Below, one piece after another: positions 3,884 through 46,437 of a stretch of 46,437 nucleotides of DNA. Positions within the stretch are counted from its first letter, which is position 1. Every line of letters begins with the position of its first letter. This DNA comes from Planctomycetota bacterium (lineage in GTDB: Bacteria > Planctomycetota > Phycisphaerae > Phycisphaerales > SM1A02), in the NCBI GenBank assembly GCA_022566535.1, contig JADFIR010000024.1:1-46437 (forward strand). Direction: 5' to 3'. Made by a program: the position numbers and the translations under genes. The notes below the pieces were generated by a model, which worked only from the letters and a program-made list of their open reading frames with translations, ran no database searches and was not told the origin of the DNA.

Positions 3884-5273
3884 GGTCGCGGCCGTGGCCT
3901 GGCGCGAATTCAAGCAGACGGTCATGCGCAAGATTTTTCTGCTGGCGGTGCTCGGCATACCTGTACTGGTTATCGCTATCGGGGCAGTTGCCGGCCTAAT
4001 GATGACCTCACATCAGGAACCCCCGATCGTTGGAACAGTCGCGATCGTCGATCCCACGGGTGAACTGTCCGTAGCGGCGCAGATCGAATTCGACCAAGAG
4101 AAGATCCGAAGCGACGAGGAGCGACAACAGCGAGATCTTGTAGAAAGCGCCACAGAAGCGATTGGTACTGGGTCGATCCCATCGAGTCCCATGAGCACGC
4201 CCGGCGCGATGCCAAAGGCAGCCCGGGGTGAGGTGATCATCACGATCGAGCGGGTTGAAGGGGATGCCGACGCGTCGCTGATGACGCTCAAGCAACGTGT
4301 TCGCGACGACGACCTGCTTGCGGTAGCGGTAATCGCGCCTGAGGTTCTCGACACACCCCCTGACCGGGGTAGCCGGCAGAGATTCCAATTGTTCGTTTCG
4401 GAGGATCTCGACAGCGACCACGTGAGTTTGATCGAGCAACGACTTGGCGCATCCGTCGTGCGCGTCCGAGCCCAGCGCACCGGCCAGGACCCCGAGGAGG
4501 TGCTGGCCATGCTCAAGCGCCCCAGGGCCGATACAAAACGCATGCTTGAGGACGGCCAAGAGATGGATGCCTCGGCTGGAACACGTAAGCTCGCGCAGAT
4601 CATCATTCCCATGGCCTTTATGATGCTGATCTGGATCGGCACGCTCACCTCAGGCCAACATCTCCTGATGACCACCATCGAGGAGAAGTCCAACCGCGTG
4701 ATGGAGGTGTTGCTCAGCGCGGTCAGCCCGCTCCAACTCATGACGGGAAAGATTCTCGGCCACGGTGGTGTCGGCCTCTTGATCGTGCTCATCTATTCGT
4801 CGGCCGGAATCTTCGCTCTGATCATGATGGAGCGTTTCACCCAGTTCATCAACACGATGGATCTGGTGTACCTCGGCGTGTTCTATTTCATGGCCTATTT
4901 CATGATCGCCTCGATCATGGCTGCGGTGGGCAGCGCCGTCAGCGACATACGCGAGGCGAACACGCTGATGACGCCGGTCATGCTGCTGCTGATGATCCCG
5001 TGGATGTTGTGGATGCCGATCACACAGGCGCCCAACGGCACGGTCGCCACGGTTTGCAGCTTCATTCCCCCGATGATTCCGTTCGCGATGATTCTTCGCC
5101 ACGTCGCGGAAGAGCCGATGCCGATGTGGCAGTATCCGGTTTCGATCATTTGGGGTTACATCTGCGTGCTCGGCATGATCTGGATGGCCGCCAAGGTCTT
5201 CCGCATCGGGGTACTCATGTACGGCAAGCCGCCGTCGCCGCTTGAGCTGCTCAAGTGGCTGCGGTACTCATAG
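3876..5273 (+). CDS. ABC-2 type transporter permease (NatB-like)
   Basis: Membrane subunit (465 aa) partnering the ATPase just upstream, which it overlaps by 8 bp. Topology is that of NatB/YhaP exporters. There is one N-terminal helix (IFLLAVLGIPVLVIAIGAVA), then a large extracytoplasmic domain of about 200 residues, then a C-terminal block of about six helices beginning near residue 245 (IIIPMAFMMLIWIGT). The motif TTIEEKSNRVMEVLLSAVSP before the later helices is the conserved ABC-2 family segment. It ends with a short cytoplasmic tail (GKPPSPLELLKWLRYS). Such pairs export ions, antibiotics or lipids; the sequence does not decide between them. It appears to be the last gene of a two-gene operon, followed by 150 bp without a gene. 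Confidence 0.88.
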   Translation: MSKVAAVAWREFKQTVMRKIFLLAVLGIPVLVIAIGAVAGLMMTSHQEPPIVGTVAIVDPTGELSVAAQIEFDQEKIRSDEERQQRDLVESATEAIGTGSIPSSPMSTPGAMPKAARGEVIITIERVEGDADASLMTLKQRVRDDDLLAVAVIAPEVLDTPPDRGSRQRFQLFVSEDLDSDHVSLIEQRLGASVVRVRAQRTGQDPEEVLAMLKRPRADTKRMLEDGQEMDASAGTRKLAQIIIPMAFMMLIWIGTLTSGQHLLMTTIEEKSNRVMEVLLSAVSPLQLMTGKILGHGGVGLLIVLIYSSAGIFALIMMERFTQFINTMDLVYLGVFYFMAYFMIASIMAAVGSAVSDIREANTLMTPVMLLLMIPWMLWMPITQAPNGTVATVCSFIPPMIPFAMILRHVAEEPMPMWQYPVSIIWGYICVLGMIWMAAKVFRIGVLMYGKPPSPLELLKWLRYS

Positions 5274-5359
5274 CGCCCCTTGACCCGTACCGTGCTCGGT
5301 TCTGAAGTGCCGCTTGGGCCGATGGCAACCGGCCTCCCGAACGGCCCTCCACCGAAGCC

Positions 5360-5388
5360 ATGACGCTCGCGGGGTCTCTCAGTACACT
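5360..5388 (+). promoter_or_regulatory. Possible sigma70-type promoter of the CoA-transferase gene
   Basis: ATGACG at 5360-5365 and TACACT at 5383-5388 are separated by 17 bases and lie 36 bases upstream of the start codon at 5424. Each box matches four of six consensus bases. This is pattern matching by eye only. Confidence 0.25.
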
Positions 5389-5423
5389 GCGACGGCTCGG
5401 ATGACTGGAAGCGAACAACAGCT

Positions 5424-6131
5424 ATGGTTGAGAAAGTCTACGACACCCCCGCGGCCGCCCTGGATGGGTTGCTGTTCGATGGCATGACGATCGCGGCCGG
5501 GGGCTTCGGCCTCTGCGGAATCCCCGAGCAGCTCATCATCGCCGTGGGCGCCTCAAACGTGCGTGACCTGACGGTGATCTCCAACAACGCCGGCGTTGAC
5601 GATTGGGGACTGGGGCTGTTGCTGCAATCCCGGCAAGTCAAGAAGATGGTCAGCTCCTACGTCGGTGAGAACGACGAGTTTGAGCGGCAATACATCGCCG
5701 GCGAACTGGAGGTTGAGTTCTGTCCCCAAGGCACGTTGGCGGAACGGCTTCGGGCCGGCGGCGCGGGCATCCCCGGCTTCTATACCCCCACCGGCGTCGG
5801 CACCATCATCGCCAAGGGAAAGGAGCAAAGGCAGTTTGACGGCCAAACCTACATTCTCGAACGCTCAATCGTTGCCGACCTCTCCCTCGTCAAAGCTTAT
5901 CAGGCTGACCACGCCGGCAACCTCATCTACCGCCGGACCGCTCGCAACTTCAACCCCATGATCGCCGCCTGTGGCAAGACCACCGTCGCTGAAGTTGAAG
6001 AGATCGTCCAGACAGGCCGGCTCAACCCCGAACACATCCATACACCGAGCATTTTCGTCAACCGCATCGTCCAAACGGTCCCCGAGAAGCGCATCGAACA
6101 GCGCACGACGAGCGATCGGCCGAAGACCTGA
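5424..6131 (+). CDS. scoA: 3-oxoacid CoA-transferase, subunit A
   Basis: Alpha subunit (235 aa, full family length) of succinyl-CoA:3-oxoacid CoA-transferase, which moves CoA from succinyl-CoA to acetoacetate in ketone-body or butanoate use. Family marks: start MVEKVYDTPAAALDGLLFDG, the glycine-rich segment GGFGLCGIPEQLI, SNNAGVDDWGLG, SSYVGEN, the GTLAERLRAGGAGIPGFYTPTGVGT segment (given here in part), and NFNPMIAACGKTTVAEVEEI. The beta subunit, which carries the catalytic Glu, normally follows directly. Here it does not: the next gene is an unrelated secreted protein behind a hairpin and its own promoter. The partner must be elsewhere or be lost. The spacing upstream (150 bp) suggests its own promoter. 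Neighbouring genes give no pathway context. Confidence 0.93.
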   Translation: MVEKVYDTPAAALDGLLFDGMTIAAGGFGLCGIPEQLIIAVGASNVRDLTVISNNAGVDDWGLGLLLQSRQVKKMVSSYVGENDEFERQYIAGELEVEFCPQGTLAERLRAGGAGIPGFYTPTGVGTIIAKGKEQRQFDGQTYILERSIVADLSLVKAYQADHAGNLIYRRTARNFNPMIAACGKTTVAEVEEIVQTGRLNPEHIHTPSIFVNRIVQTVPEKRIEQRTTSDRPKT

Positions 6132-6153
6132 TCGCGCGCCGTCAACCGCTTCT

Positions 6154-6220
6154 CACTGTAAAGCCGCGACCACTGGTCGCGGTCCTTTCATCGGCGCCAA
6201 CGATGCTAGCCGCCGAACAA
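6154..6220. repeat. Dispersed hairpin repeat, copy 1 (possible terminator)
   Basis: The palindrome CCGCGACCA (6164-6172) / TGGTCGCGG (6174-6182) is preceded by CACTGTAAAG and followed by TCCTTTC. It sits 23 bp after the CoA-transferase stop codon, so it can act as a transcription terminator. The hairpin and the conserved 3' tail (TCGGCGCCAACGATGCT, GCCGC, GAACAA) recur near the right end of the window (46182-46259), with a second bare hairpin at 46158-46176. It is therefore a dispersed intergenic repeat and not a one-off stem. Confidence 0.75.
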
Positions 6221-6289
6221 TCCCGTCACCCAATCCCATAGCCCCTGACTACGCCGGGGCATTGCTTTGTCATCTCGGCGCGCCATCGA

Positions 6290-6330
6290 AGCATTTTTTC
6301 CTTGACTGGTCGGACGATCCGTGTTCCAAT
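6290..6330 (+). promoter_or_regulatory. Promoter block of the FG-GAP exoprotein gene
   Basis: GCATTTTTTC runs straight into TTGACT (-35, 6302-6307); 17 bases later comes TCCAAT (-10, 6325-6330). The same T-tract plus TTGAC arrangement precedes two other exoprotein genes (9713-9754 and 11969-12009). The T-tract resembles an UP element. The conservation is visible; the promoter function is inferred. Confidence 0.55.
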
Positions 6331-6354
6331 GGCTTTGAGCAGGAGGAAAGGACG

Positions 6355-9300
6355 ATGGCAGGCAGCGTCCGATTGATCGGAGCGGGGGTGGCTGCGGGTC
6401 TCCTAACGAGCCTGTTGCTCCGCGGCGAGGCGAGCAGCGGCCAAGTGGCCCCGGTCGCCGTGGGCACAGTCCAGCTCACGGACGTGCGGTCCAAGGCACA
6501 ACCGGCCGGGCAGGCTGCCCCAAAGCGGCGCACCACCCGAGGACAACCCTCCTCGCCTGCGGACGGCGGTGTGGCCGGGCCCTGCCCAGGCCTGGGTGAC
6601 TGCTGCGTGAACAACGGATCGCCCGGATGCGATGATCTCGCATGCTGCAACGCGATCTGCGCGAATGACCCCTTCTGCTGCAAGAACACCTGGGACCAGC
6701 TCTGCGCCGATGCAGGGGTTGCGGATCCGGTCAACTGCCCGCAATGCCAGCCACCGCCGCCACCGGTTGGAGACGAGTGCGAGATCGCCAAACTCCTGGC
6801 CTCCGACGGCGCTAACGGCGACCGGTTCGGAATCTCGGTCTCGATCAGCGGCGACGTGGCGGTGGTGGGGGCCTTCGGGTTCGATATTGTTGGGCCTGAT
6901 GTGCCGGGCTCGGCGTATGTGTTCGGCTGGAACGGCTTGGCCTGGGTCCAGCAGGCCAAGCTCACCGCCTCCGACGGCGTTGACGATGACTTCTTCGGCG
7001 TCTCTGTCTCGATCAGCGGCGACGTAGTGGTGATCGGGGCTTCTAGGACCGGCGTCAACAACGGCTCGGCCTATGTGTTCCAAAAGCCCCCCGGCGGCTG
7101 GATGAACATGACCCAAACGGCCAAGCTCACCGCCTCCGATACCGATGTCTTCGATTTTTTCGGTTTCTCGGTGTCGATCAGCGATGACGTGCTCGTGGTC
7201 GGAGCCAAAGAAGAGTTTTCTGGTGACCCCGGCAAGGCGTATGTGTTCGTCAAGCCCCCCGGCGGCTGGGTGGACATGACGCAGACCGCCAGGCTCACCG
7301 CCTCCGATGGCGCTGCCGATGACCTCTTCGGCTGGTCGGTCTCGATCAGCGGCGAGGTGGCCGTGATCGGGGCCTATGTCGACGATGACAACGGCAGTGA
7401 CTCCGGCTCGGCGTACGTGTTCCAGAAGCCCGTCGACGGCTGGGTGAACATGACCCAGACCGCGAAGCTCACCGCCTCCGACGGCGCGGCCGGTGACAAC
7501 TTCGGCATCTCAGTCGCGATCAGCCGCGACGTGATCCAGATCGGGGCTCCTTTCGCCGATGGTAACGTTGCGAGTTCCGGCTCGGCGTATGTGTTCGTTC
7601 AACCCCCCGGCGGCTGGGTGACCGGGACCGAAACCGCCAAGCTCACCGCCTCCGACGGCGCTGCCTTGGACGAGTTCGGCGGCTCGGTGTCGATCAGCGA
7701 CGATGTGATCGTAGTCGGGGCCGCGTATGACGATGACAACGCCGGTGCCACTGGCTCGGCGTACGTGTTCGTCAAGTCCCCCCCCGGCTGGGTGGACATG
7801 ACCCAAACCGCCAAGCTCACCGCCTCCGATGGCGCTTTCGCTGACGCCCTCGGCAACTCGGCCTCGATCAGCGGCGATGTGGCTGTGATCGGGGCATCGT
7901 TCGACGATGACAACGGCCCGAGTTCCGGCTCAGCGTACGTGTTCGGCGTTCCCGGCCTCGATTGCAACGGCAACGATCTACCGGACGCCTGTGACGTCTT
8001 CCTCGGCACGAGCAGCGACTTCAACGCCAACCTTATCCCGGACGAGTGCGATAGCTTCGCCTACAACCTTACGCAAGTCACCTTCCACGGCACGATCGCA
8101 GACGCGATCGCCACCGCCGTCCACGGAGACGTTCTGCTCGCGTCTCCGGTGTTCTTCACCCGCGAGCCCGACATTGATTTCGCCGGCAAGTCGATCGCCC
8201 TGTCGAGCTTCGCCGAAATCGATCAGCCGGCGGGAGGGCTGTATGTCCTGGCCGACAGTTCGGCTCTGTCCGCTGCCGTCGGCAGCCATATGACCCTGGC
8301 CGGTGAGCTGCGAGTGGGTGTGACGGATAATGTGGATCTATTCGCCGATCAGATCATGATCAGCGCGACCGGTCTGTTGACGGCACAGCCTGGCGCCGGC
8401 GTAGACATCGCAGCGCCCAACGGGCTCATCAATGACGGGGCCATCAGTTCGCTCGGCGCTGTGCTTGGGGTGAGCCCAGGACTGACGAACTCGATATTGG
8501 CAACGATGACCTCCTACGGCGATATCGTCACGAACCTCACCAACGACGGCCAGGCGACTTACATCGCCGATACGCAATTCCTCGGTGATTACCTCAACAA
8601 CGGCACGACCACTATCCAGAACGGGACCTTGACGATCATCGGAACCCTGACCAACAACGGCACGATCATCGGTGATGTGGCCGGCGGTGCGGCTAGTGGG
8701 CTGCCCGTGGCGGCTGGGGACGGCCTCGCTGTGATCGGCGACTACGCCGCCGGTGTCGGAGCCTCCCTCGTGATGCCCTCGCCTGACCTGACCGTCAAGA
8801 TCGCCGGCAACTACGAAGTGGCGATCAACAACAACATCAGCTACGACATGGCCCAGGCCGAGCTGCGCATGATCGGCTTGGGCGGTCTGTCCCAGTCCCT
8901 GGAGGTGATGAGCCTCGATATCGGCCCAGACCCGGCCGGTCTGGATCGCACCCTGCCCGGCCACTATCCGATCGGCACGCTGCGCATCGGCCCGACGCGA
9001 ACCACCGTCAACATGACCGACATTCACGACAACGACGCCCTCGGCCAGAAGCTCTCCGAAGCGATCTACGTGGAGAACCTCATCATCGAAGCCGGTGCCA
9101 CGCTGAACACACTCGTCCGCCCGGTGTACTACGTGAACCTGACAAACAACGGCGCCGTTGACGATCCGGCGAACCTTATCGCCCTGCCACCGCCGTCTAG
9201 CACCGCCGACATCTCCGGTCCGCTCGGCCCCGGCTTCCCGGACGGATGCGTTGACGCGTTCGACCTGGGAACGCTGCTGGGTGCGTGGTGCTCTGCTGCG

Positions 9301-9492
9301 GGTGATCCGGACCCGCCCAAGGACGAAGACCCGCCCTGCGAGGACTGCACCTCCCCAAACTTCACCCTGGCGGACATCTCCGGTGCGGCCAATGTGGCGG
9401 ATGGTTGCGTCGATGCGTTCGACCTGGCGAAGCTGCTGGCCGAGTGGTGCTCGGTCGCCGGCGGCAACCCCTGCGGCACCTGCGGCCCGTAG
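6355..9492 (+). CDS. Secreted FG-GAP repeat protein with C-terminal double dockerin-like module
   Basis: Predicted extracellular or surface protein of 1045 aa. The start at 6355 is chosen because AGGAGG lies eight bases upstream and a signal peptide follows (MAGSVRLIGAGVAAGLLTSLLL); the open frame extends upstream to 5971 but that part overlaps scoA and the promoter. Order of parts: Cys-rich module about 78-131 (GDCCVNNGSPGCDDLACC...DPFCC...WDQLC); seven FG-GAP-like repeats about 143-535 (core AKLTASDGA..D.FG.SVSISGDV..IGA), expected to fold as a beta-propeller; an EF-hand-like calcium-binding stretch about 536-566 (DCNGNDLPDACD, DFNANLIPDECD); a long beta-rich region with LTNNGT repeats to about 940; and two dockerin-like units 951-1045 ending GGNPCGTCGP. 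No enzyme motif was found; adhesion or matrix binding is plausible. Likely T2SS cargo given the operon downstream. Confidence 0.88.
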   Translation: MAGSVRLIGAGVAAGLLTSLLLRGEASSGQVAPVAVGTVQLTDVRSKAQPAGQAAPKRRTTRGQPSSPADGGVAGPCPGLGDCCVNNGSPGCDDLACCNAICANDPFCCKNTWDQLCADAGVADPVNCPQCQPPPPPVGDECEIAKLLASDGANGDRFGISVSISGDVAVVGAFGFDIVGPDVPGSAYVFGWNGLAWVQQAKLTASDGVDDDFFGVSVSISGDVVVIGASRTGVNNGSAYVFQKPPGGWMNMTQTAKLTASDTDVFDFFGFSVSISDDVLVVGAKEEFSGDPGKAYVFVKPPGGWVDMTQTARLTASDGAADDLFGWSVSISGEVAVIGAYVDDDNGSDSGSAYVFQKPVDGWVNMTQTAKLTASDGAAGDNFGISVAISRDVIQIGAPFADGNVASSGSAYVFVQPPGGWVTGTETAKLTASDGAALDEFGGSVSISDDVIVVGAAYDDDNAGATGSAYVFVKSPPGWVDMTQTAKLTASDGAFADALGNSASISGDVAVIGASFDDDNGPSSGSAYVFGVPGLDCNGNDLPDACDVFLGTSSDFNANLIPDECDSFAYNLTQVTFHGTIADAIATAVHGDVLLASPVFFTREPDIDFAGKSIALSSFAEIDQPAGGLYVLADSSALSAAVGSHMTLAGELRVGVTDNVDLFADQIMISATGLLTAQPGAGVDIAAPNGLINDGAISSLGAVLGVSPGLTNSILATMTSYGDIVTNLTNDGQATYIADTQFLGDYLNNGTTTIQNGTLTIIGTLTNNGTIIGDVAGGAASGLPVAAGDGLAVIGDYAAGVGASLVMPSPDLTVKIAGNYEVAINNNISYDMAQAELRMIGLGGLSQSLEVMSLDIGPDPAGLDRTLPGHYPIGTLRIGPTRTTVNMTDIHDNDALGQKLSEAIYVENLIIEAGATLNTLVRPVYYVNLTNNGAVDDPANLIALPPPSSTADISGPLGPGFPDGCVDAFDLGTLLGAWCSAAGDPDPPKDEDPPCEDCTSPNFTLADISGAANVADGCVDAFDLAKLLAEWCSVAGGNPCGTCGP

Positions 9493-9689
9493 GTGCTCGG
9501 CGCAGCCACGTCTCTGCGCGCACCGCGGCACACATCGCCGCGCGCCCGCGGAGCGCACCGGCCCATAGCCGCGCGCCGAAGCCCGCGGACTCATGCCGCC
9601 GAATTGGGACCATCAAACGCCACCTCAGCGAGCGGCGCCGTCCCCAGCCCGGTGTCCCTCCGAACGCAAGCCGCACCCGCCGCCACGCC
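9205..9689 (+). repeat. Direct repeat copy A: dockerin coding block plus 3' flank
   Basis: This 485-bp block matches 11460-11944 at a constant offset of 2255 bp without gaps and with about seven mismatches. It starts at the codons for ADISG at the head of the double dockerin-like module, includes the stop codon (9490-9492), and continues almost 200 bp into noncoding sequence. Of the differences seen in the coding part, all three are synonymous. Weaker similarity continues into the next promoter (with one indel). Confidence 0.92.
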
Positions 9690-9712
9690 TTAGGTCTCCC
9701 CACGCGCAACCC

Positions 9713-9754
9713 ACGCATTTTTTCCTTGACAGGCGGGGTGATCTGTGCTATGGG
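9713..9754 (+). promoter_or_regulatory. Promoter block of the Gly-rich secreted protein gene
   Basis: ACGCATTTTTTC followed directly by C and TTGACA (-35, 9726-9731), then 17 bases, then TATGGG (-10, 9749-9754). It is nearly identical up to the -35 box with the block at 11969 and similar to that at 6290. The gap 9493-9849 otherwise holds only the noncoding part of the direct repeat and a leader of about 90 bases. Confidence 0.6.
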
Positions 9755-9849
9755 TCACAATGCGCGAGCGGGAGGAAGCAACCAGCCATGCAAGCAGTTG
9801 TAGGGTGGGTCTGGACCCACCACATGACTCAGAACAAGGAGAAACCATC

Positions 9850-11064
9850 ATGTACAAAGTTCTGATTGCGGTCAGCACTCTCATACTGACCTCACCGGCG
9901 CTGGCCCAATTCACCAGCGACTCGGACGGGTCGGATGGGGCGTTCATGCCAGGAGGACCCACGTACCTCGTTGACCTGTCGCTGGCCCCGACCGGTCCCT
10001 GGGACACCACACCCCATGCAGCCGGCGTCGGCGTCTACGATCCGGTGCAGTGGGCGGTTGTCTTCCAGTACACGACCATTGACATCCCCGCCGGCGTCAC
10101 CGTCACCTTTCATAACCATCTCAAGGGCCCGCCGGTCATCTGGCTGGCCACGGGGGATGTGACCATCGCGGGCGACGTGGTCCTGGACGGTGCAAACGGG
10201 TGCTTTGGCGCGGGATGCTCGTATGCCACTCCCGGCCCGGGCGGCTTCTCAGGGGGCATCGGCAGCCCAGGAGGAAGATCAGCAGGCTTTGGCCCCGGTG
10301 GAGGCGGCTTCAATGGTCTCTCTGGTGGCGGAGGTGGGTATGGAACCGGCGGCCAAGGACAAGGCGGAGTGATCTACGGGACGGCCACGATCGTTCCCCT
10401 GATCGGAGGCTCGGGCGGCGGCTGGGGGGTAGCCGGCGGACTCCGTTCAGGAGGAGCGGGCGGCGGCGCTATTCTGATCGCGTCCTCCGGGAACATCTTC
10501 CTGGATTCCTTCGGAGGGATCTTTGCCACAGGCGGCGATGCCGCCTGCTGCAACGAGGCCGGAGGCGGCTCGGGGGGCGGTATCCGGTTGATCACCAACA
10601 CTATTTCGGGATCGGGAATGTTGCGAGCCCTTGGCGGAACGGGGGGAGTTAATATCGGAGGCGACGGCAGGATTCGTGTCGAGGCCAAAAGGAACATGTT
10701 GGTGGATCCAGGTGATCCCCTGTTCACCACAGGCCTCCCGGGATCGGTCTTCCCTGATGCGACGGGACCAACGCTGCGGGTCACCGCCGTGAATGGCGTG
10801 CCGGTCCCGGCCGATCCCCTGGCCACCGTGGTCTCGCCGGATGTGTGCTTCATCTCCGCGGGCCTGGTCACGATCGACATCGAAGCCCAGAACGTTCCGG
10901 TCGGGCTGGCTGTCACCGTCCGCATCGTGGATGCGCTCGGGGGCTTTAGCCAGGTTGTCACCTCGACTCCTCTGGCAGGAACGTTGGTCCTGTCGACCGC
11001 CACCGCGGATGCCACGTTCATCGATGGCGCCTCGGAAGTGCAACTCAGCGTTCAAGTGCCGTGA
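9850..11064 (+). CDS. Gly-rich secreted protein of unknown function
   Basis: A 404-aa product. The ATG at 9850 is chosen because AAGGAGA lies about eight bases upstream and a clean signal peptide follows (MYKVLIAVSTLILTSPALAQ, cleavage after AQ); upstream in-frame codons to 9745 lie in the leader. The mature protein begins FTSDSDGSDGAFMPGG and has an Asp/Gly-rich start. It then has a beta-rich segment (VDIPAGVTVTFHN-type wording, here IDIPAGVTVTF; VTIAGDVVLDGANG). A markedly glycine-rich stretch about residues 130-210 follows (GGGGYGTGGQGQGG), then a C-terminal beta-rich domain ending VQLSVQVP. It lacks the dockerin-like module of its neighbours. The overall plan (short strands naming an ideal surface, then Gly-rich turns) suggests a right-handed beta-helix or matrix protein. 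No catalytic motif was seen. Located exactly between the two copies of the direct repeat. Confidence 0.78.
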   Translation: MYKVLIAVSTLILTSPALAQFTSDSDGSDGAFMPGGPTYLVDLSLAPTGPWDTTPHAAGVGVYDPVQWAVVFQYTTIDIPAGVTVTFHNHLKGPPVIWLATGDVTIAGDVVLDGANGCFGAGCSYATPGPGGFSGGIGSPGGRSAGFGPGGGGFNGLSGGGGGYGTGGQGQGGVIYGTATIVPLIGGSGGGWGVAGGLRSGGAGGGAILIASSGNIFLDSFGGIFATGGDAACCNEAGGGSGGGIRLITNTISGSGMLRALGGTGGVNIGGDGRIRVEAKRNMLVDPGDPLFTTGLPGSVFPDATGPTLRVTAVNGVPVPADPLATVVSPDVCFISAGLVTIDIEAQNVPVGLAVTVRIVDALGGFSQVVTSTPLAGTLVLSTATADATFIDGASEVQLSVQVP

Positions 11065-11135
11065 GTGATGATTCCTGACGGGGATCGTACGGGCTCGCCC
11101 CGAGAGCGGGGTGGGCGGGGATAAGGAGGCCTCCC

Positions 11136-11747
11136 ATGCAGGCTTATGCGAAGACCCTCGGGATTATGATTATCCTGGCGGCCCTGGCGATTCAACTGAC
11201 CCAGGCCGTAGTGCCAAAGGGTCCAATCGATGTGTTCGTATCCCGGGCCTTCACCGTCATCAACAACACCAACAACATCTTCGCATCCCGGGCCTTTACT
11301 GTCATCAACAACACCAACAACATCTTCGCATCCCGGGCCTTCACCGTCATCAACAACACCAACAACATCATCGTATCCCGGGCCTTCACCGTCTTAACCT
11401 CCAGCCTCGACTGCAACGGCAACGGGATTCCCGATGAGTGTGAAGTAGCGCTCTTCCCAGCCGACATCTCCGGTCCGCTCGGCCCCGGCTTCCCGGACGG
11501 ATGCGTTGACGCGTTTGACCTCGGGACGCTGCTGGGTGCGTGGTGCTCTGCTGCGGGTGATCCGGACCCGCCCAAGGACGAAGACCCGCCCTGCGAGGAC
11601 TGCACCTCCCCAAACTTCACCCTGGCGGACATCTCCGGTGCGGCCAATGTGGCGGATGGTTGCGTCGATGCGTTCGACCTGGCGAAGCTGCTGGCCGAGT
11701 GGTGCTCGGTCGCCGGCGGCAACCCCTGCGGCACCTGCGGCCCGTAG
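11136..11747 (+). CDS. Small secreted protein: 15-residue repeats plus double dockerin-like module
   Basis: A 203-aa product. The ATG at 11136 follows AAGGAGG with six bases of spacing and opens a signal peptide (MQAYAKTLGIMIILAALAIQ, cleavage near TQA-VVP). Residues 35-87 are three full copies and one partial copy of a 15-residue unit, [VA]SRAFTVINNTNNI[FI]. Next comes an EF-hand-like calcium loop (DCNGNGIPDECE, about 93-104). The two dockerin-like units (DGCVDAFDLGTLLGAWCS and DGCVDAFDLAKLLAEWCS) then end in GGNPCGTCGP. The whole C-terminal 95 residues are identical to those of the FG-GAP protein encoded at 6355-9492. With so little else in it, this may be a display scaffold, a structural repeat protein, or a decayed relic of a larger protein. 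The gene follows the Gly-rich gene by 71 bp and could share its transcript. Confidence 0.82.
   Translation: MQAYAKTLGIMIILAALAIQLTQAVVPKGPIDVFVSRAFTVINNTNNIFASRAFTVINNTNNIFASRAFTVINNTNNIIVSRAFTVLTSSLDCNGNGIPDECEVALFPADISGPLGPGFPDGCVDAFDLGTLLGAWCSAAGDPDPPKDEDPPCEDCTSPNFTLADISGAANVADGCVDAFDLAKLLAEWCSVAGGNPCGTCGP
11238..11396 (+). repeat. 45-bp in-frame tandem repeat
   Basis: Units at 11238-11282, 11283-11327 and 11328-11372 plus a partial unit to 11396. Each encodes SRAFTVINNTNNI with one flanking residue; only a few bases differ between units. The length is an exact multiple of three, so copy number can vary without breaking the frame. Confidence 0.93.
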
Positions 11748-11944
11748 GTGCTTGGCGCAGCCACGTCTCTGCGCGCACCGCGGCACACATCGCCGCGCGC
11801 CCGCGGAGCGCACCGGCCCATAGCCGCGCGCCGAAGCCCGCGGACTCATGCCGCCGAATTGGGACCATCAAACACCACCTCAGCGAGCGGCGCCGTCCCC
11901 AGCCCGGTGTCCCTCCGAACGCAAGCCGCGCCCGCCGCCAAGCC
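11460..11944 (+). repeat. Direct repeat copy B: dockerin coding block plus 3' flank
   Basis: Second copy of the block at 9205-9689. It covers the last 96 codons of the 203-aa protein gene and almost 200 bp past the stop at 11745-11747. Differences include TTC/TTT, CTG/CTC and GGA/GGG (all silent) and a few single-base changes in the flank. Confidence 0.92.
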
Positions 11945-11968
11945 ATTTGTCATCGCAGCCCGCAATCC

Positions 11969-12009
11969 ACGCATTTTTTCGTTGACATGGCCCGCCCGGG
12001 TGGTATCCT
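11969..12009 (+). promoter_or_regulatory. Promoter block of the subtilase gene
   Basis: ACGCATTTTTTC, one base, then TTGACA (-35, 11982-11987), 16 bases, TATCCT (-10, 12004-12009). It is the best consensus match of the three related blocks. The remaining gap 12010-12132 is a leader ending with AGAGG seven bases before the ATG at 12133. The earlier part of the gap (11748-11944) is the repeat flank. Confidence 0.65.
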
Positions 12010-12132
12010 GGCGGCCATCGTTGGGAGGTGGTCGCAGGGGGGCTCGTGACCTCCGGGGCGGCCAGGGACTCGGCCAACCAATCGGGAGCACCACCCTGTG
12101 GCCTGCCAGCACAAAGAAAAAGAGGTTCAGCC

Positions 12133-14022
12133 ATGCGGTTCAATCGCCATTGCATCACGATTCGCGCACTCGCAACGCTCTGCCTTCTCGCCGCGCTGAC
12201 TCTGCTCGCGAGCTCGGTTGATGCCCAGATCGTTCCCCGTCCAGAGGTGATCAAACCTGTGAATACGCGCGTGGACGATGCTCGCTTCCGCAGCGACGTG
12301 ATAACGGTTAAGTTTCGAGACGGTCTGTTGGTCCGCTTGCGCAACGGCAGCCTCACCGACATGGATACTGGCGGTCTGGACGGTGCGGAAGATGTGCTGG
12401 CTAGCGTTGCCGGTGGAAGGTGGGAACGCACGCATTCTCTGCCGGAACAAAAGCTCGACAAACTCCGTCAGACGGCCCAGAAGAACTTGGGGAAAGCCGT
12501 CGCTGACTTGAACCTGCAATTCACCCTCTTCTTGCCGCAAGGCGCTGATGCAGCTGCGACTCTTGACGCCTTCAATGCCCTCGACTGCGTCGAGATAGCG
12601 TTGCCGATTCCAAAGCCGGTACCTCCGCCGGTTCCGCCGAACTTTCAGCCGAACCAGGTCTATGAGAACGCCGGCCCGGCGGGCATCAGCGCCGAAGAGG
12701 TCTGGGCCAATCTGGGAATCACCGGCGGAGGCATCAAGATCGTCGATGTAGAGTACAGTTGGAACTTGAATCATCTCGACTTGCCGCCGACCACAGTTCT
12801 TGGCTTCGCTCCGGTTGATCCGTTCAACGACAACAACCACGGCACAGCGGTGCTCGGCGAGGTCGCGGCGATCGAAAACGGCTGGGGGGTCACCGGCATC
12901 GCGTATGATGCGCAGTTCTATGTGGCCGGCACCTGGAATGGCACCGTATGGAACGTCGGCGGGGCGATCATCACCGCACTCGGTACGCTTGGCCCCGGCG
13001 ACATCATCATCATCGAGCAACAGTTTCCCGGTCCCAATGGGGAAACCGCGTACGTCCCGATTGAATGGTGGCTGCCGTGGTACAACGCGATCGTCACTGC
13101 CGTGGGCAATGGCGTCATCGTTGTCGAGGCAGCGGGCAATGGCTCGCAGAATCTCGACGATCCAATCTACAGCACGGGCAATGGCGGCCACTGGCCGTTC
13201 CTGCCTGAGAACGATTCTGGTGCGATCATCGTGGGAGCAGGTGCTGCGTGGCCTCCCTTCGGCTCGGATGTCGCCGGCTCCCGCCTGTGGTTCTCCACCT
13301 ATGGATCCACCGTAGACCTGCAGGGGTGGGGCGAAGGCGTCTGGACCACGGGCTACGGCGGCGCCTGGTCCTCGGAGGGTGTGAACCTGTGGTACACATC
13401 CGGTTTCGCCGGTACCTCCTCGGCTTCACCCATCGTCGCCGGAGCCTGCGCGCTGCTCGAGTCGGCCTACAAAGATGCAACCGGTCTGGTCCTGACGCCT
13501 GCCCAGGTGAAGCAATACCTGCAAGACACCGGCTGGCCACAAACCAGCGGGACATACCCCGCCAGTCAGAACATCGGCCCTCGCACCGACGCCTACCAGG
13601 CCATTCTTGCCGTCCTGCCGACCGGTGCTTGCTGCTTCGGTGACGGCTCATGCACGGTGGAGACCTCCGGCAGTTGCCAGGCGCTCGGCGGCAGCTACCA
13701 GGGTGACGGCGGCAACTGCTCGCCAAACAACTGCCCCGCCCCCAGCCCCGCAGACATCACCGGGCCGGGCGGTGTACCTGATGGATGTGTTGACGCGTTT
13801 GACCTCGGCGCGATGCTCGGGGCGTGGTGTTCCGCCGTCAACGACCCGAACCCGCCGAGCCCACCCTGCGAGAACTGCACGCCGGCGAATCTCGCCGTCG
13901 CGGACATCTCCGGTGCGGCCAATCTCCCGGATGGGTGCGTCGATGCGTTCGACCTGGCGAAGCTGCTGGCCGAGTGGTGCTCCGTCGCCGGCGGCAACCC
14001 ATGCGGCACCTGCGGCCCCTAG
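12133..14022 (+). CDS. Secreted subtilisin-like serine peptidase (S8) with double dockerin-like module
   Basis: Predicted extracellular protease, 629 aa. Start at 12133 is set by AGAGG upstream and the signal peptide (MRFNRHCITIRALATLCLLA..., cleavage near VDAQ). A propeptide-like region spans about 35-175. The S8 domain covers about 185-500: Asp205 in IVDVEYSW, His236 in NNHGTAVLGE, oxyanion Asn336 in EAAGNGS, Ser429 in GTSSASPIVAGA. The Asp motif is D-V-E, not the usual D-[ST]-G, a variant I believe occurs in some S8 members. Then follows a Cys-rich unit (GACCFGDGSCTVET...GSCQALGG) about 497-535 and two dockerin-like units (PDGCVDAFDLGAMLGAWCS, PDGCVDAFDLAKLLAEWCS) ending GGNPCGTCGP. Its C-terminal module is more diverged from the other two, so it was not part of the recent duplication. 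Transcribed from its own promoter. Confidence 0.93.
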   Translation: MRFNRHCITIRALATLCLLAALTLLASSVDAQIVPRPEVIKPVNTRVDDARFRSDVITVKFRDGLLVRLRNGSLTDMDTGGLDGAEDVLASVAGGRWERTHSLPEQKLDKLRQTAQKNLGKAVADLNLQFTLFLPQGADAAATLDAFNALDCVEIALPIPKPVPPPVPPNFQPNQVYENAGPAGISAEEVWANLGITGGGIKIVDVEYSWNLNHLDLPPTTVLGFAPVDPFNDNNHGTAVLGEVAAIENGWGVTGIAYDAQFYVAGTWNGTVWNVGGAIITALGTLGPGDIIIIEQQFPGPNGETAYVPIEWWLPWYNAIVTAVGNGVIVVEAAGNGSQNLDDPIYSTGNGGHWPFLPENDSGAIIVGAGAAWPPFGSDVAGSRLWFSTYGSTVDLQGWGEGVWTTGYGGAWSSEGVNLWYTSGFAGTSSASPIVAGACALLESAYKDATGLVLTPAQVKQYLQDTGWPQTSGTYPASQNIGPRTDAYQAILAVLPTGACCFGDGSCTVETSGSCQALGGSYQGDGGNCSPNNCPAPSPADITGPGGVPDGCVDAFDLGAMLGAWCSAVNDPNPPSPPCENCTPANLAVADISGAANLPDGCVDAFDLAKLLAEWCSVAGGNPCGTCGP

Positions 14023-14330
14023 GTGTCCATGGTGAAAGTGGTTTCGACGTTTTACAGGCCGCGTTGCGGACCCCATCAGGAGCCGTGAAGCCTGACCCCA
14101 GTGAGTTCCGCCATGGGCTGCTCGGCCGCTTCCTGACGTGCGCAGCTCATCAAATCGCTACACTTGGGCCGCAACCGCTCTGATCCTGGCCCTACAGCCG
14201 GTCCGGATGGAGGCGAATTGTGGATTTCCTGCCATAATTGGCAGGGTGCGTCGTTGAACGGCGTAGAAGTGGTGCACCCAGACTGGCGGGGCACCACCGC
14301 GGTGGGATTATTTTGGAAGGAGACCTGTAG
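14023..14330. other. Intergenic region with a perfect palindrome
   Basis: No gene seen. It holds the inverted repeat CCTGCCA-TAAT-TGGCAGG at 14228-14245 and a second short one, CCACCGCGGTGG, near 14290-14302, just before the Shine-Dalgarno sequence (AAGGAG) of the next gene. The first could be an operator or a leader hairpin; no clear promoter boxes were found around it. Confidence 0.5.
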
Positions 14331-15635
14331 ATGAATGGTTTGAAGACTTGCGCCGGCCGGAGCAATCGCATGCGATGGGCGCCGACCCTGGTCGCCGCGC
14401 TGGGGCTGACCGCATCGGCATCGGCGCAGTTCGGCCTGAGTCCGAGCATCAGCAGCGCGTTTCGCCAGTCCTTTACCACCCGTGACATCCAACTGGCGGT
14501 TGAAGGGCTGCAACTGGACGAAAACCAGCGGTTCATCCTGGAGACTCTCTTTGCGGACTATCAGGCTGATTTTCGCACCGGCGTGGAAGGATTCCGCCAG
14601 CGCATCACCGACTTGCGCAGCGAGATCGACCCCACGAATCCCGACCCTGCACAGGCCATGCGGATCGTCTTCGGCTCGATGGACGAGTGGCAGGTAGAAA
14701 GTCAGCGATTGGCCGACCGGCTGGTCGAGGATCTGAAAGGACTGCTCAGCGAGGAGCAACAGGAGTTCTGGCCGCCCTTCGAGCGACGCGTGTTCCGCCT
14801 GAAGTTCCTCAACAAGGGCAGGCTGGCGGGCGAGAGTCTTGACCTGTTTAGCGCGGTGCGGAGCCTGAATCTCGATGAGACGATGATGCAGACGATCCAG
14901 CCGCTGCTCGATGAGTATGGGCAGACGCTACACGAGGCATTGCGGGCCCGCGAGGACTACGTCAACGCCGCAGAGTCTGATCGAATCAGGGCAATCCAGG
15001 ATCGTAAGCCTGAGCTCAACATTGCCGTGGCGGCGAGGGAAGTCCAGCTGCGCACGGCGGTGCGGGACGTCAACGAACAGTATTCGGTCACCATCGCCGC
15101 TGCATTGCCCGAAGAAACCGGACAGCGCCTTGTGGCATCATTACGGGAGAGGATGTACCCCCGCATCTACCGTCTGACGCACGCCCAGCGGATATTCAAG
15201 GCCGTCAAGAAAATCGATGGCCTCTCCGAAGATACCTTCGAGGCAATCGAAAGCCTTGAGGAGTTGTTCCTCAGCGAGCTCGGTTCGTTCAACGAACGCC
15301 TGGTGGGATTGATCAAGGAACAAGAGCCCAACGAACTGAAGAGCAAGCTCGAGCAGTTGACGGCTCGAGGAGCACAGCCCAAGTCAACTGGTGCGATCTT
15401 GCGCGAGGAGTTTCGCAAGCGCCAGGCAATGAGCGACCGATACGTCAATCAATTGCGGGACCTGCTCACGCCCGAACAGTTTGCGTCGCTCCCAGGGGCC
15501 GGAAGGTGGGTGAAGCCCGCTCGAGGTTCTCGTGCAACGGGAGCAGCGGGCAAGGACGGCGGCGCTACCGATGACTCCCGCCGCAAGCTGGGCATCCAGC
15601 GCAAAAAGGAGAAGAAGGGCGGGAGGCAAAGCTAA
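14331..15635 (+). CDS. Periplasmic helical protein with three Spy/CpxP-like repeats
   Basis: A 434-aa product with an AAGGAG box before the ATG. Its N-terminus is a signal peptide with a long basic lead (RWAPTLVAALGLTASASAQ, cleavage after SAQ). The mature part is almost all charged helix. I see three internal repeats about 120 residues apart, starting near residues 58, 178 and 297 (LQLDENQRFILETLFADY; LNLDETMMQTIQPLLDEY; IDGLSEDTFEAIESLEEL). Each is followed by an LTxxQ-like element (LLSEEQQEFW, ALPEETGQRL, LLTPEQFASL). The LTxxQ pattern is typical of the Spy/CpxP periplasmic chaperone or stress-sensor family, but those have one unit; a three-unit version is inference. The C-terminus is basic (KEKKGGRQS). 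It lies 365 bp upstream of gspE, on the same strand, and might serve the secretion system. Confidence 0.65.
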   Translation: MNGLKTCAGRSNRMRWAPTLVAALGLTASASAQFGLSPSISSAFRQSFTTRDIQLAVEGLQLDENQRFILETLFADYQADFRTGVEGFRQRITDLRSEIDPTNPDPAQAMRIVFGSMDEWQVESQRLADRLVEDLKGLLSEEQQEFWPPFERRVFRLKFLNKGRLAGESLDLFSAVRSLNLDETMMQTIQPLLDEYGQTLHEALRAREDYVNAAESDRIRAIQDRKPELNIAVAAREVQLRTAVRDVNEQYSVTIAAALPEETGQRLVASLRERMYPRIYRLTHAQRIFKAVKKIDGLSEDTFEAIESLEELFLSELGSFNERLVGLIKEQEPNELKSKLEQLTARGAQPKSTGAILREEFRKRQAMSDRYVNQLRDLLTPEQFASLPGAGRWVKPARGSRATGAAGKDGGATDDSRRKLGIQRKKEKKGGRQS

Positions 15636-45964: not shown

Positions 45965-46437
45965 CCATGCCCTCATTACTCATGGCCCGGCTGGCGCCCA
46001 AAGCGACGCCCCAAGACGACGACCGCCGCCAGCCGGCCCAAGCGACGGCCAACATAGGCCCGCACCCAGGTTCCCGCAACCGACTCCGTGCCAGGATTCA
46101 CAAACTGACAACCCCCTCACCCCCCGCCCCTCCGAGCCGCGCTCGCTTCTTGTGAAGCCGCGACCATTGGTCGCGGTTTGCCACTGTAAAGCCGTCCCAA
46201 TTCCACCGGGACTGGTCGCGGTTTTCTGTTCGGCGCCAACGATGCTCGCCGCTGAACAAGCCCCGCCAGGGAGCGCCCCGGAACCAAGTCGCGTAGCCGC
46301 CAGGTCCGGGCGATCTCAAGGAACAGGTGCGGCCGGAGATTCAAGCTCGGCGGGACGGCACGGCTTGCTCGGAATGTTCCTTGGCGACCGCGGCCGGTGG
46401 GTCTGATTGCTTACGGCCTCAACGGAGGTTGGGGATC
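45965..46437. other. Non-coding right end with hairpin repeats
   Basis: No gene is supported in these 473 bases. In particular nuoI or another upstream Complex I gene is absent: I see no CxxCxxCxxxCP motif on the minus strand. Frames that are open here are Arg/Pro-rich. The stretch contains the repeat copies described at 46154-46259. The nuoJ-N operon therefore probably starts with its own promoter here, but I could not pick boxes with confidence. Confidence 0.6.
46154..46259. repeat. Dispersed hairpin repeat, two further copies
   Basis: The first is a bare hairpin, CCGCGACCA (46158-46166) / TGGTCGCGG (46168-46176), followed by TTTG. The second (46182-46259) begins CACTGTAAAGCCG, has the right arm ACTGGTCGCGGTTTT but a replaced left arm (TCCCAATTCCACCGGG). 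It then carries the same tail as the copy at 6154-6220 (TCGGCGCCAACGATGCT, GCCGC, GAACAA). The stem with T-run on the plus strand could terminate transcription entering from the right-hand side. Confidence 0.75.

What the first reader, a model, noticed from the sequence alone, without database searches (positions are those of the whole stretch)
9205..11987. A dockerin tag duplicated together with its noncoding 3' flank and the next gene's promoter
The two copies (9205-9689 and 11460-11944) align without gaps at about 98-99% identity. They begin exactly at the first residues of the double dockerin-like module, run about 200 bp beyond the stop codon, and weaker similarity continues through the T-tract to the -35 box of the following gene (9731, 11987). 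Coding differences are all silent. So the unit that is being copied seems to be tag + 3' flank + next promoter, a ready-made module for giving a new gene both a C-terminal surface tag and an expression signal. That the noncoding part is as conserved as the coding part implies a recent copy, gene conversion, or function in the flank.
Basis: partly seen in the sequence, partly recalled or inferred. Interest (0 to 1): 0.72.

Follow-up and report, generated by a model that had tools for sequence, protein, structure and literature searches.

The report
Shared tags for swapping protein bodies
In this planctomycete-type bacterium the DNA for a C-terminal protein tag occurs twice, near-identical and together with its noncoding tail, and at the same chromosomal spots in sister species unrelated protein bodies sit in front of related tags, so the shared tag and start regions likely act as handles through which recombination swaps whole protein bodies while keeping the gene's ends.

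Summary
In detail: 9205-9689 and 11460-11944 match at 478 of 485 bases, from the first base of a double GC-type dockerin tag to 197 nt past the stop; the 3 coding differences are silent. This exact flank has no further full copy among the matches scored, so "tag + flank + next promoter" is not a general unit. The wider phenomenon is larger. I followed 40 such tags in the genome. Among the 36 with a body in front (630 pairs), 66 pairs share at least 60 nt of noncoding DNA past both stops, and only 9 of those 66 have related bodies. At 19 tag loci the downstream DNA is collinear in a sister genome; at 7 of them the body in front of the tag is unrelated. One is the next tag in this window: subtilase here, another protein in the sister, 94.9% identity from 13738 on. 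Promoter-leaders reassort too: gene B's leader joins a different body in a third genome. Junctions vary (tag start, inside the tag, in the flank), which points to homologous recombination rather than a site-specific element. The flank shows no sign of function. The window pair is best read as the youngest footprint of this exchange.

The parts
6291..6306 (+). Promoter box GCATTTTTTCCTTGAC upstream of gene A
   Evidence: Exact pattern match, one of 5 in the genome; leader alignment
6355..9492 (+). Gene A: FG-GAP repeat protein with C-terminal GC-type dockerin tag (start codon 6355 is my choice)
   Evidence: ORF; PF14312 E 1e-120; NF041540 25.8 bits full length, below the 29-bit cut-off
9205..9489 (+). 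Tag copy 1, double GC-type dockerin module
   Evidence: NF041540 32.8 bits on the tag alone; 282 of 285 nt identical to copy 2
9493..9689 (+). Noncoding 3' flank copy 1
   Evidence: 193 of 197 nt identical to 11748-11944; first ~35 nt similar after several other GC tags; no further full copy among matches scored
9640..9734 (+). Promoter-upstream leader segment within and past flank 1
   Evidence: 88.5% to the leader after the CoA-transferase gene in sister genome G001; similar stretches at C26, C23, C52
9726..9754 (+). Putative promoter of gene B, TTGACA -35
   Evidence: Read from the sequence; not in the list; conserved box
9850..11064 (+). Gene B: Gly-rich protein without tag; no match in sister genomes G001-G003
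   Evidence: ORF; no Pfam family; of 121 genomes, matches only in its own and two weak ones; 84% homologue and a large family in public proteins
11136..11747 (+). Small ORF (203 aa): hydrophobic N-terminus, 45-bp repeats and tag copy 2
   Evidence: Translation; NF041540 31.2 bits
11460..11744 (+). Tag copy 2
11748..11944 (+). Noncoding 3' flank copy 2
11895..12116 (+). Leader of gene C (promoter box 11971-11986, -35 11982-11987)
   Evidence: 90% to G001:C58, where it precedes FG-GAP-like gene X instead of a subtilase; promoter-like TTGACA-16-TATCCT, though the number of such sites is not above shuffles (2 against 0.9 +/- 1.0)
12133..14022 (+). Gene C: subtilase-family protease with tag copy 3
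   Evidence: PF00082 E 6.3e-16; NF041540 30.0 bits
13735..14019 (+). Tag copy 3; from 13738 the DNA is collinear with G001:C58, where another body precedes it
   Evidence: 94.9% over 8272 nt from 13738; bodies give no blastp hit

Best explanation
The duplicated tag plus flank is most likely the youngest footprint of homologous recombination between dispersed tag, 3'-flank and promoter-leader repeats, which would exchange the unrelated protein bodies lying between them. Shown: about 40 GC-type dockerin tags per genome in two species; tags and stretches of their noncoding flanks shared by genes with unrelated bodies; orthologous loci in sister species with different bodies in front of related tags and collinear downstream DNA; leaders joined to different bodies. 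Inferred: a crossover or conversion tract anchored in one of these repeats lets a gene body be replaced, inserted or deleted while the gene keeps a ready leader and an in-frame C-terminal tag. For the window: gene B plus the small tagged ORF lie between two near-identical tag+flank copies, and gene B has no protein match in three sister genomes; this is the geometry expected if they entered by a single crossover in the tag/flank or by a duplication followed by body replacement. Untested: the enzymes, the rate, whether exchange is selected for, and what the tag binds.
For: (1) Among 36 tags with a body (630 pairs), 66 pairs share at least 60 nt past both stops, 9 of them body-related; 16 share at least 150 nt, 1 body-related. 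(2) 19 of the 40 tag loci have collinear downstream DNA in a sister genome: bodies unrelated at 7, related at 9 (C57:19099 is in both groups, against different sisters), a tag remnant on one or both sides at 4. (3) Window tag 3: 94.9% from 13738 on, body different. (4) Polarised cases: at C57:19099 two genomes share the body end and G001 alone differs up to the tag start, with collinear DNA on both sides; at C9:701 the body is kept and G000 alone has a different first ~200 nt of tag, starting at the tag start. (5) Identity steps inside tags: C81:53423 goes from 0.70-0.76 in the first three quarters to 0.91 in the last, C6:3127 from 0.64-0.77 to 0.86-0.94. (6) G003:C138 joins gene B's leader (89%) to body Y (91.6% to G001) with a 5-nt overlap; leader C precedes gene X in G001. 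(7) Enough homology: the longest exact stretch that a tag region shares with another in the genome has median 53 nt.
Against: The exact window flank was not found elsewhere, so the window pair alone could be a one-off. 9 of the 19 loci keep a related body, so exchange is not universal. Flank families may have been copied few times and then inherited, so pairs are not independent events. All genomes are drafts, most likely metagenome assemblies (three are titled MAG); no reads were seen. Some sister-side bodies are short or look out of frame with the tag (G001:C58:25885, 123 aa; G001:C40:54803, 91 aa). At C26:28110 a 33-aa match remains. The C74:5989 comparison is weak (0.75 over +400 to +1200). 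At C57 the G002 contig shows only the last 353 nt of the body. No comparison with untagged secreted genes was made.
Confidence: 0.7

Rival explanations
1. The window pair is a single local duplication or insertion with no wider mechanism; the other tag similarities are ordinary paralogy.
For: No further full copy of the 485-bp block was found; the two copies are 2,255 bp apart on one contig.
Against: 57 pairs of tags with unrelated bodies share noncoding flank; orthologous loci with different bodies.
Confidence: 0.14
2. A site-specific or transposable unit carries the tag, flank and promoter as a cassette, in the manner of integron cassettes or a small mobile element.
For: 5' similarity starts within 15 nt of the tag start in 45 of 57 pairs; one flank family (F1) has 22 matches, some without a GC tag, and when body-less remnants are counted 7 of 71 pairs end together at +327 to +337, as an element with a fixed end would.
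Against: Otherwise 3' ends spread over +60 to +335; junctions lie at the tag start, inside the tag or in the flank; no inverted repeats of 40 nt or more in the window (shorter ones not looked for). The 5' boundary is also what protein homology alone would give. No integrase search was made.
Confidence: 0.08
3. The junctions are assembly chimeras at repeats.
For: All genomes are drafts; several tags lie near contig ends; the window pair shares 227 identical bases in a row.
Against: Among the 40 tag regions of this genome only the window pair shares 100 or more identical bases (2 of 40 regions; 6 of 42 in G001). Bodies agree between independent assemblies at C57, C34 and C9.
Confidence: 0.08

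Closest known systems
Variant surface glycoprotein exchange in African trypanosomes (passages read in PMC4155160)
   Same: Bodies of surface genes lie between shared upstream repeats and a shared 3' part (C-terminal coding region and 3'-UTR), and both sides serve as recombination sites; mosaics arise.
   Different: Here a bacterium, many loci with their own putative promoters, unrelated protein families instead of variants of one coat protein, no evidence of a single expression site or of fast switching.
GC-type dockerin domain-anchored proteins, NCBIfam NF041540
   Same: Gene C and the small ORF score above the cut-off.
   Different: The name of the family says nothing about shared noncoding flanks or exchange; Pfam dockerin models do not match.
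Planctosome model of cohesin/dockerin peptidase complexes in freshwater Planctomycetes (passages read in PMC6461901)
   Same: A dockerin-type tag on a secreted-type protease (gene C); subtilase relatives in other genera end in standard-looking double dockerin modules (5 of 6 loci printed).
   Different: No Pfam cohesin (PF00963) match in this genome, so the partner is unknown.

Membership tests
GC-type dockerin (NF041540) | Score above the curated 29-bit cut-off | tested here: met
   Small ORF 31.2, gene C 30.0, tags alone 32.8 and 36.5; full-length gene A 25.8 falls below
Dockerin type I (Pfam PF00404) | Pfam match | tested here: not met
   No dockerin family among hits for 22 tag sequences
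Dockerin fold | Confident structure like solved dockerins | tested here: inconclusive
   Mean pLDDT 58.1; no sequence match in solved structures; no fold search run on so weak a model
Cohesin-dockerin anchoring | A cohesin partner in the genome | tested here: not met
   0 PF00963 matches in a 92.8% complete assembly; divergent cohesins would be missed
Homology-driven cassette exchange (VSG-like) | Shared sequence on both sides of unrelated bodies | tested here: met
   3' side; 5' side:
Homology-driven cassette exchange (VSG-like) | Breakpoints inside the shared sequence | tested here: met
   Identity steps inside tag or flank at the loci examined
Homology-driven cassette exchange (VSG-like) | Switching within a clone, one active expression site | not testable with these tools
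   Needs population or expression data
Integron gene cassettes | One fixed recombination site | tested here: not met
   Junction positions vary
Integron gene cassettes | An integrase | not tested
   No integrase search was made

The most novel reading that the evidence does not exclude
This planctomycete genus runs a genome-wide body-exchange system for secreted proteins: dispersed promoter-leaders on one side and dockerin-type tags with their noncoding tails on the other are maintained as recombination handles, so that new or foreign protein bodies can be slotted between a working start and a working surface tag.
Probability: 0.35. Interest if true: 0.82.

Novelty: new variant of a known kind. 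Interest (0 to 1): 0.63.

Why it matters
This genome gives at least 150 matches to a standard dockerin module (capped at 150) besides the 40 GC-type tags; how unrelated proteins come to carry one tag is, as far as I know, open. Here the noncoding DNA next to the tag shows that tags and bodies recombine at the DNA level, with sister-species loci in different states. If exchange is recurrent, it is a bacterial, multi-family counterpart of the cassette exchange known from antigen genes, and long reads from one sample can test it. My searches found no print account: 'GC-type dockerin' 0 papers; dockerin with Phycisphaer 4 listed, one read in passages; dockerin with gene conversion 1 unrelated paper; planctomycet + dockerin + paralog + recombination 1 paper, on huge proteins, listing only; a six-term search on planctomycetes, surface proteins and gene conversion 44 papers, 10 listed, none on this by title. 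Most subscription papers are not in that library.

Tried and rejected
Function in the flank: RNA folding no better than shuffles (z 0.67), no terminator-like site in 9493-9690, one Rfam match in 5000-15000, far below its cut-off and outside the flank. Structure of the tag: AlphaFold2 mean pLDDT 58.1, too weak for a fold search, which I did not run. Cohesin partner: none by PF00963. Other genera: outside the four genomes of the genus, DNA matches to the block are short scraps. The F1 repeat as an RNA family: no match at the gathering score in the three loci scanned. Copy direction in the window pair: at 9261, 9267 and 9270 the states are mixed among the other tags, so I leave it open. Dockerin remnants after GC-tag stops: enriched (12 of 40 flanks at E 0.01 or less, against 13 of 400 control stretches at E 0.1 or less), but several flanks are copies of one another, so I do not count them as separate insertions. 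One search printed 160 DNA matches (HSPs, not distinct pairs) between 77 tagged genes with under 80 aa of aligned body; many lie upstream of the ORF, others near the tag. Papers seen as listings or passages only and not used.
Full report
What was checked. The window is a whole contig (C11, 46,437 bp) of a draft genome of 3.36 Mb in 86 contigs, 92.8% complete. The two blocks match at 478 of 485 bases without gaps, starting at the first base of the tag and running 197 nt past the stop; three coding differences, all silent and within 10 bp, and four noncoding. The 60 nt upstream match at 19 positions only. The tag is the GC-type dockerin of NCBIfam NF041540; no Pfam dockerin model matches it.

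How general it is. Searching the genome with the block and with the tag gave 42 matches each (in one search only 40 of 111 first-look candidates were scored). I carried 40 tags forward, dropping the two weakest (C7:43769, C75:13207). The window's own flank showed no further full copy (40 of 63 candidates scored). But other tags share other flanks. Over all 40 tags (780 pairs) 80 pairs share at least 60 nt past both stops and 9 of these have related bodies (one pair with overlapping stretches, C52:5037/C52:6341, dropped before the count). Four of the 40 are remnants with under 60 aa before the tag; without them there are 66 such pairs, 9 related and 57 unrelated, and 16 pairs at 150 nt or more, 1 related. 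In the 57 the similarity starts within 15 nt of the tag start in 45, 16-60 nt upstream in 11 and inside the tag in 1; 3' ends run from +60 to +335. With the remnants included, 7 of 71 pairs end together at +327 to +337. One flank type, F1, is itself a dispersed intergenic repeat with 22 matches, including places without a GC tag. Another carries a remnant of a standard dockerin module after the stop: 12 of 40 flanks here and 10 of 42 in sister G001, against 13 of 400 control stretches at a looser cut-off.

Sister genomes. Tag-scale DNA matches to the block are confined to three further genomes of the genus among the 121 genomes searched (own included); 19 more have only scraps. The sister side consists of the 63 tags on stretches I fetched (42, 15 and 6), so loci where a sister lacks a tag were not looked for. 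Of 38 candidate pairs with downstream similarity I kept 22 by hand, dropping 16 that looked like matches between unrelated copies, and added one (C34:5431/G002:C143:3823, whose far downstream DNA does not align): 23 comparisons over 19 of our loci. Bodies give no blastp hit at 6 loci and a 33-aa match only at a seventh; they are related at 9; C57:19099 is in both groups because G002 keeps the body and G001 does not; at 4 loci one or both sides are tag remnants. At the window's own locus G001 has the CoA-transferase gene (95.6%), then a leader matching 11895-12116 (90%), then FG-GAP-like gene X and gene Y, both tagged, and from 13738, three bases into tag 3, 94.9% identity over 8.3 kb. So the body in front of tag 3 is a subtilase here and protein Y there. 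G002 shows our left side up to 6258, where its contig ends. On its contig G003 has no GC tag after the CoA transferase.

Junctions. At C81:53423 identity to the sister is 0.70-0.76 over three quarters of the tag and 0.91 in the last; at C6:3127 it climbs in the third quarter; at C46:8219 high identity returns about 150 nt past the stop (11 of the comparisons were examined this way). In three-way comparisons C57 has a different body in G001 only, up to the tag start; C9:701 keeps its body but G000 alone has a different first ~200 nt of tag (two loci examined). Leaders behave alike: in G003:C138 gene B's leader and first codons (89%) run into body Y (91.6% to G001) with a 5-nt overlap. The promoter box has 5 exact copies: before gene A, gene B, gene C and the tagged C23 gene, and one at C52:12855 with the next GC-tagged ORF about 2 kb on. 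As promoters these are predictions; the scan of the cluster found no more promoter-like sites than shuffles.

Reading. Variable junctions inside shared repeats fit homologous recombination better than a fixed-site element, although F1 may have an end of its own. The flank is about as diverged as a freely drifting copy (3 of 192 against 3 per 72.7 synonymous sites) and has no structure signal, so its conservation reflects recency. Gene B has no match in the three sisters by protein search but an 84% homologue and a large family in public proteins. Its position between two near-identical tag+flank copies fits insertion through that homology, or duplication plus replacement; I cannot tell which, nor the direction of copying. 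Whether the tag anchors anything is unknown: no cohesin was found, and surface anchoring is taken from the family name only.

Limits. Draft assemblies, no reads; tags repeat, though only the window pair shares 100 or more identical bases among the 40 tag regions. Pairs are not independent events, and no set of untagged genes served as a control. Subtilase relatives in other genera end in standard-looking dockerin modules (5 of 6 loci printed, L120 and L122-L125; for L121 the script printed another frame), so the tag type on gene C probably changed within this genus, which is inference.

Noticed in passing
3' flanks of 12 of 40 GC tags, e.g. G000:C52:15532-15603: Remnants of a standard dockerin module lie within 300 nt after the GC-tag stop, on the sense strand in all 12, as if one tag type had been placed before another.
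   Followed up: partly
G000:C23:33867-34162 and 21 other places: A dispersed intergenic repeat (F1, about 300 nt), often but not always after GC tags; no Rfam match in the loci scanned.
   Followed up: partly
11235-11393: 45-bp tandem repeats (three full steps) encoding a SRAFTVINNTNNI-type unit in the small tagged ORF.
   Followed up: no
6780-8050: About seven repeats of 165-174 bp in gene A encoding FG-GAP units.
   Followed up: no
6172-6224 and 46211-46263: A 53-nt direct repeat, 85% identical, 40 kb apart, just after the CoA-transferase gene and near the contig end.
   Followed up: no
G001:C12:2024 and G001:C44:80941: Two tagged genes share about 610 nt at their 5' ends at 92% while their bodies differ in length (918 against 4635 nt before the tag).
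   Followed up: no
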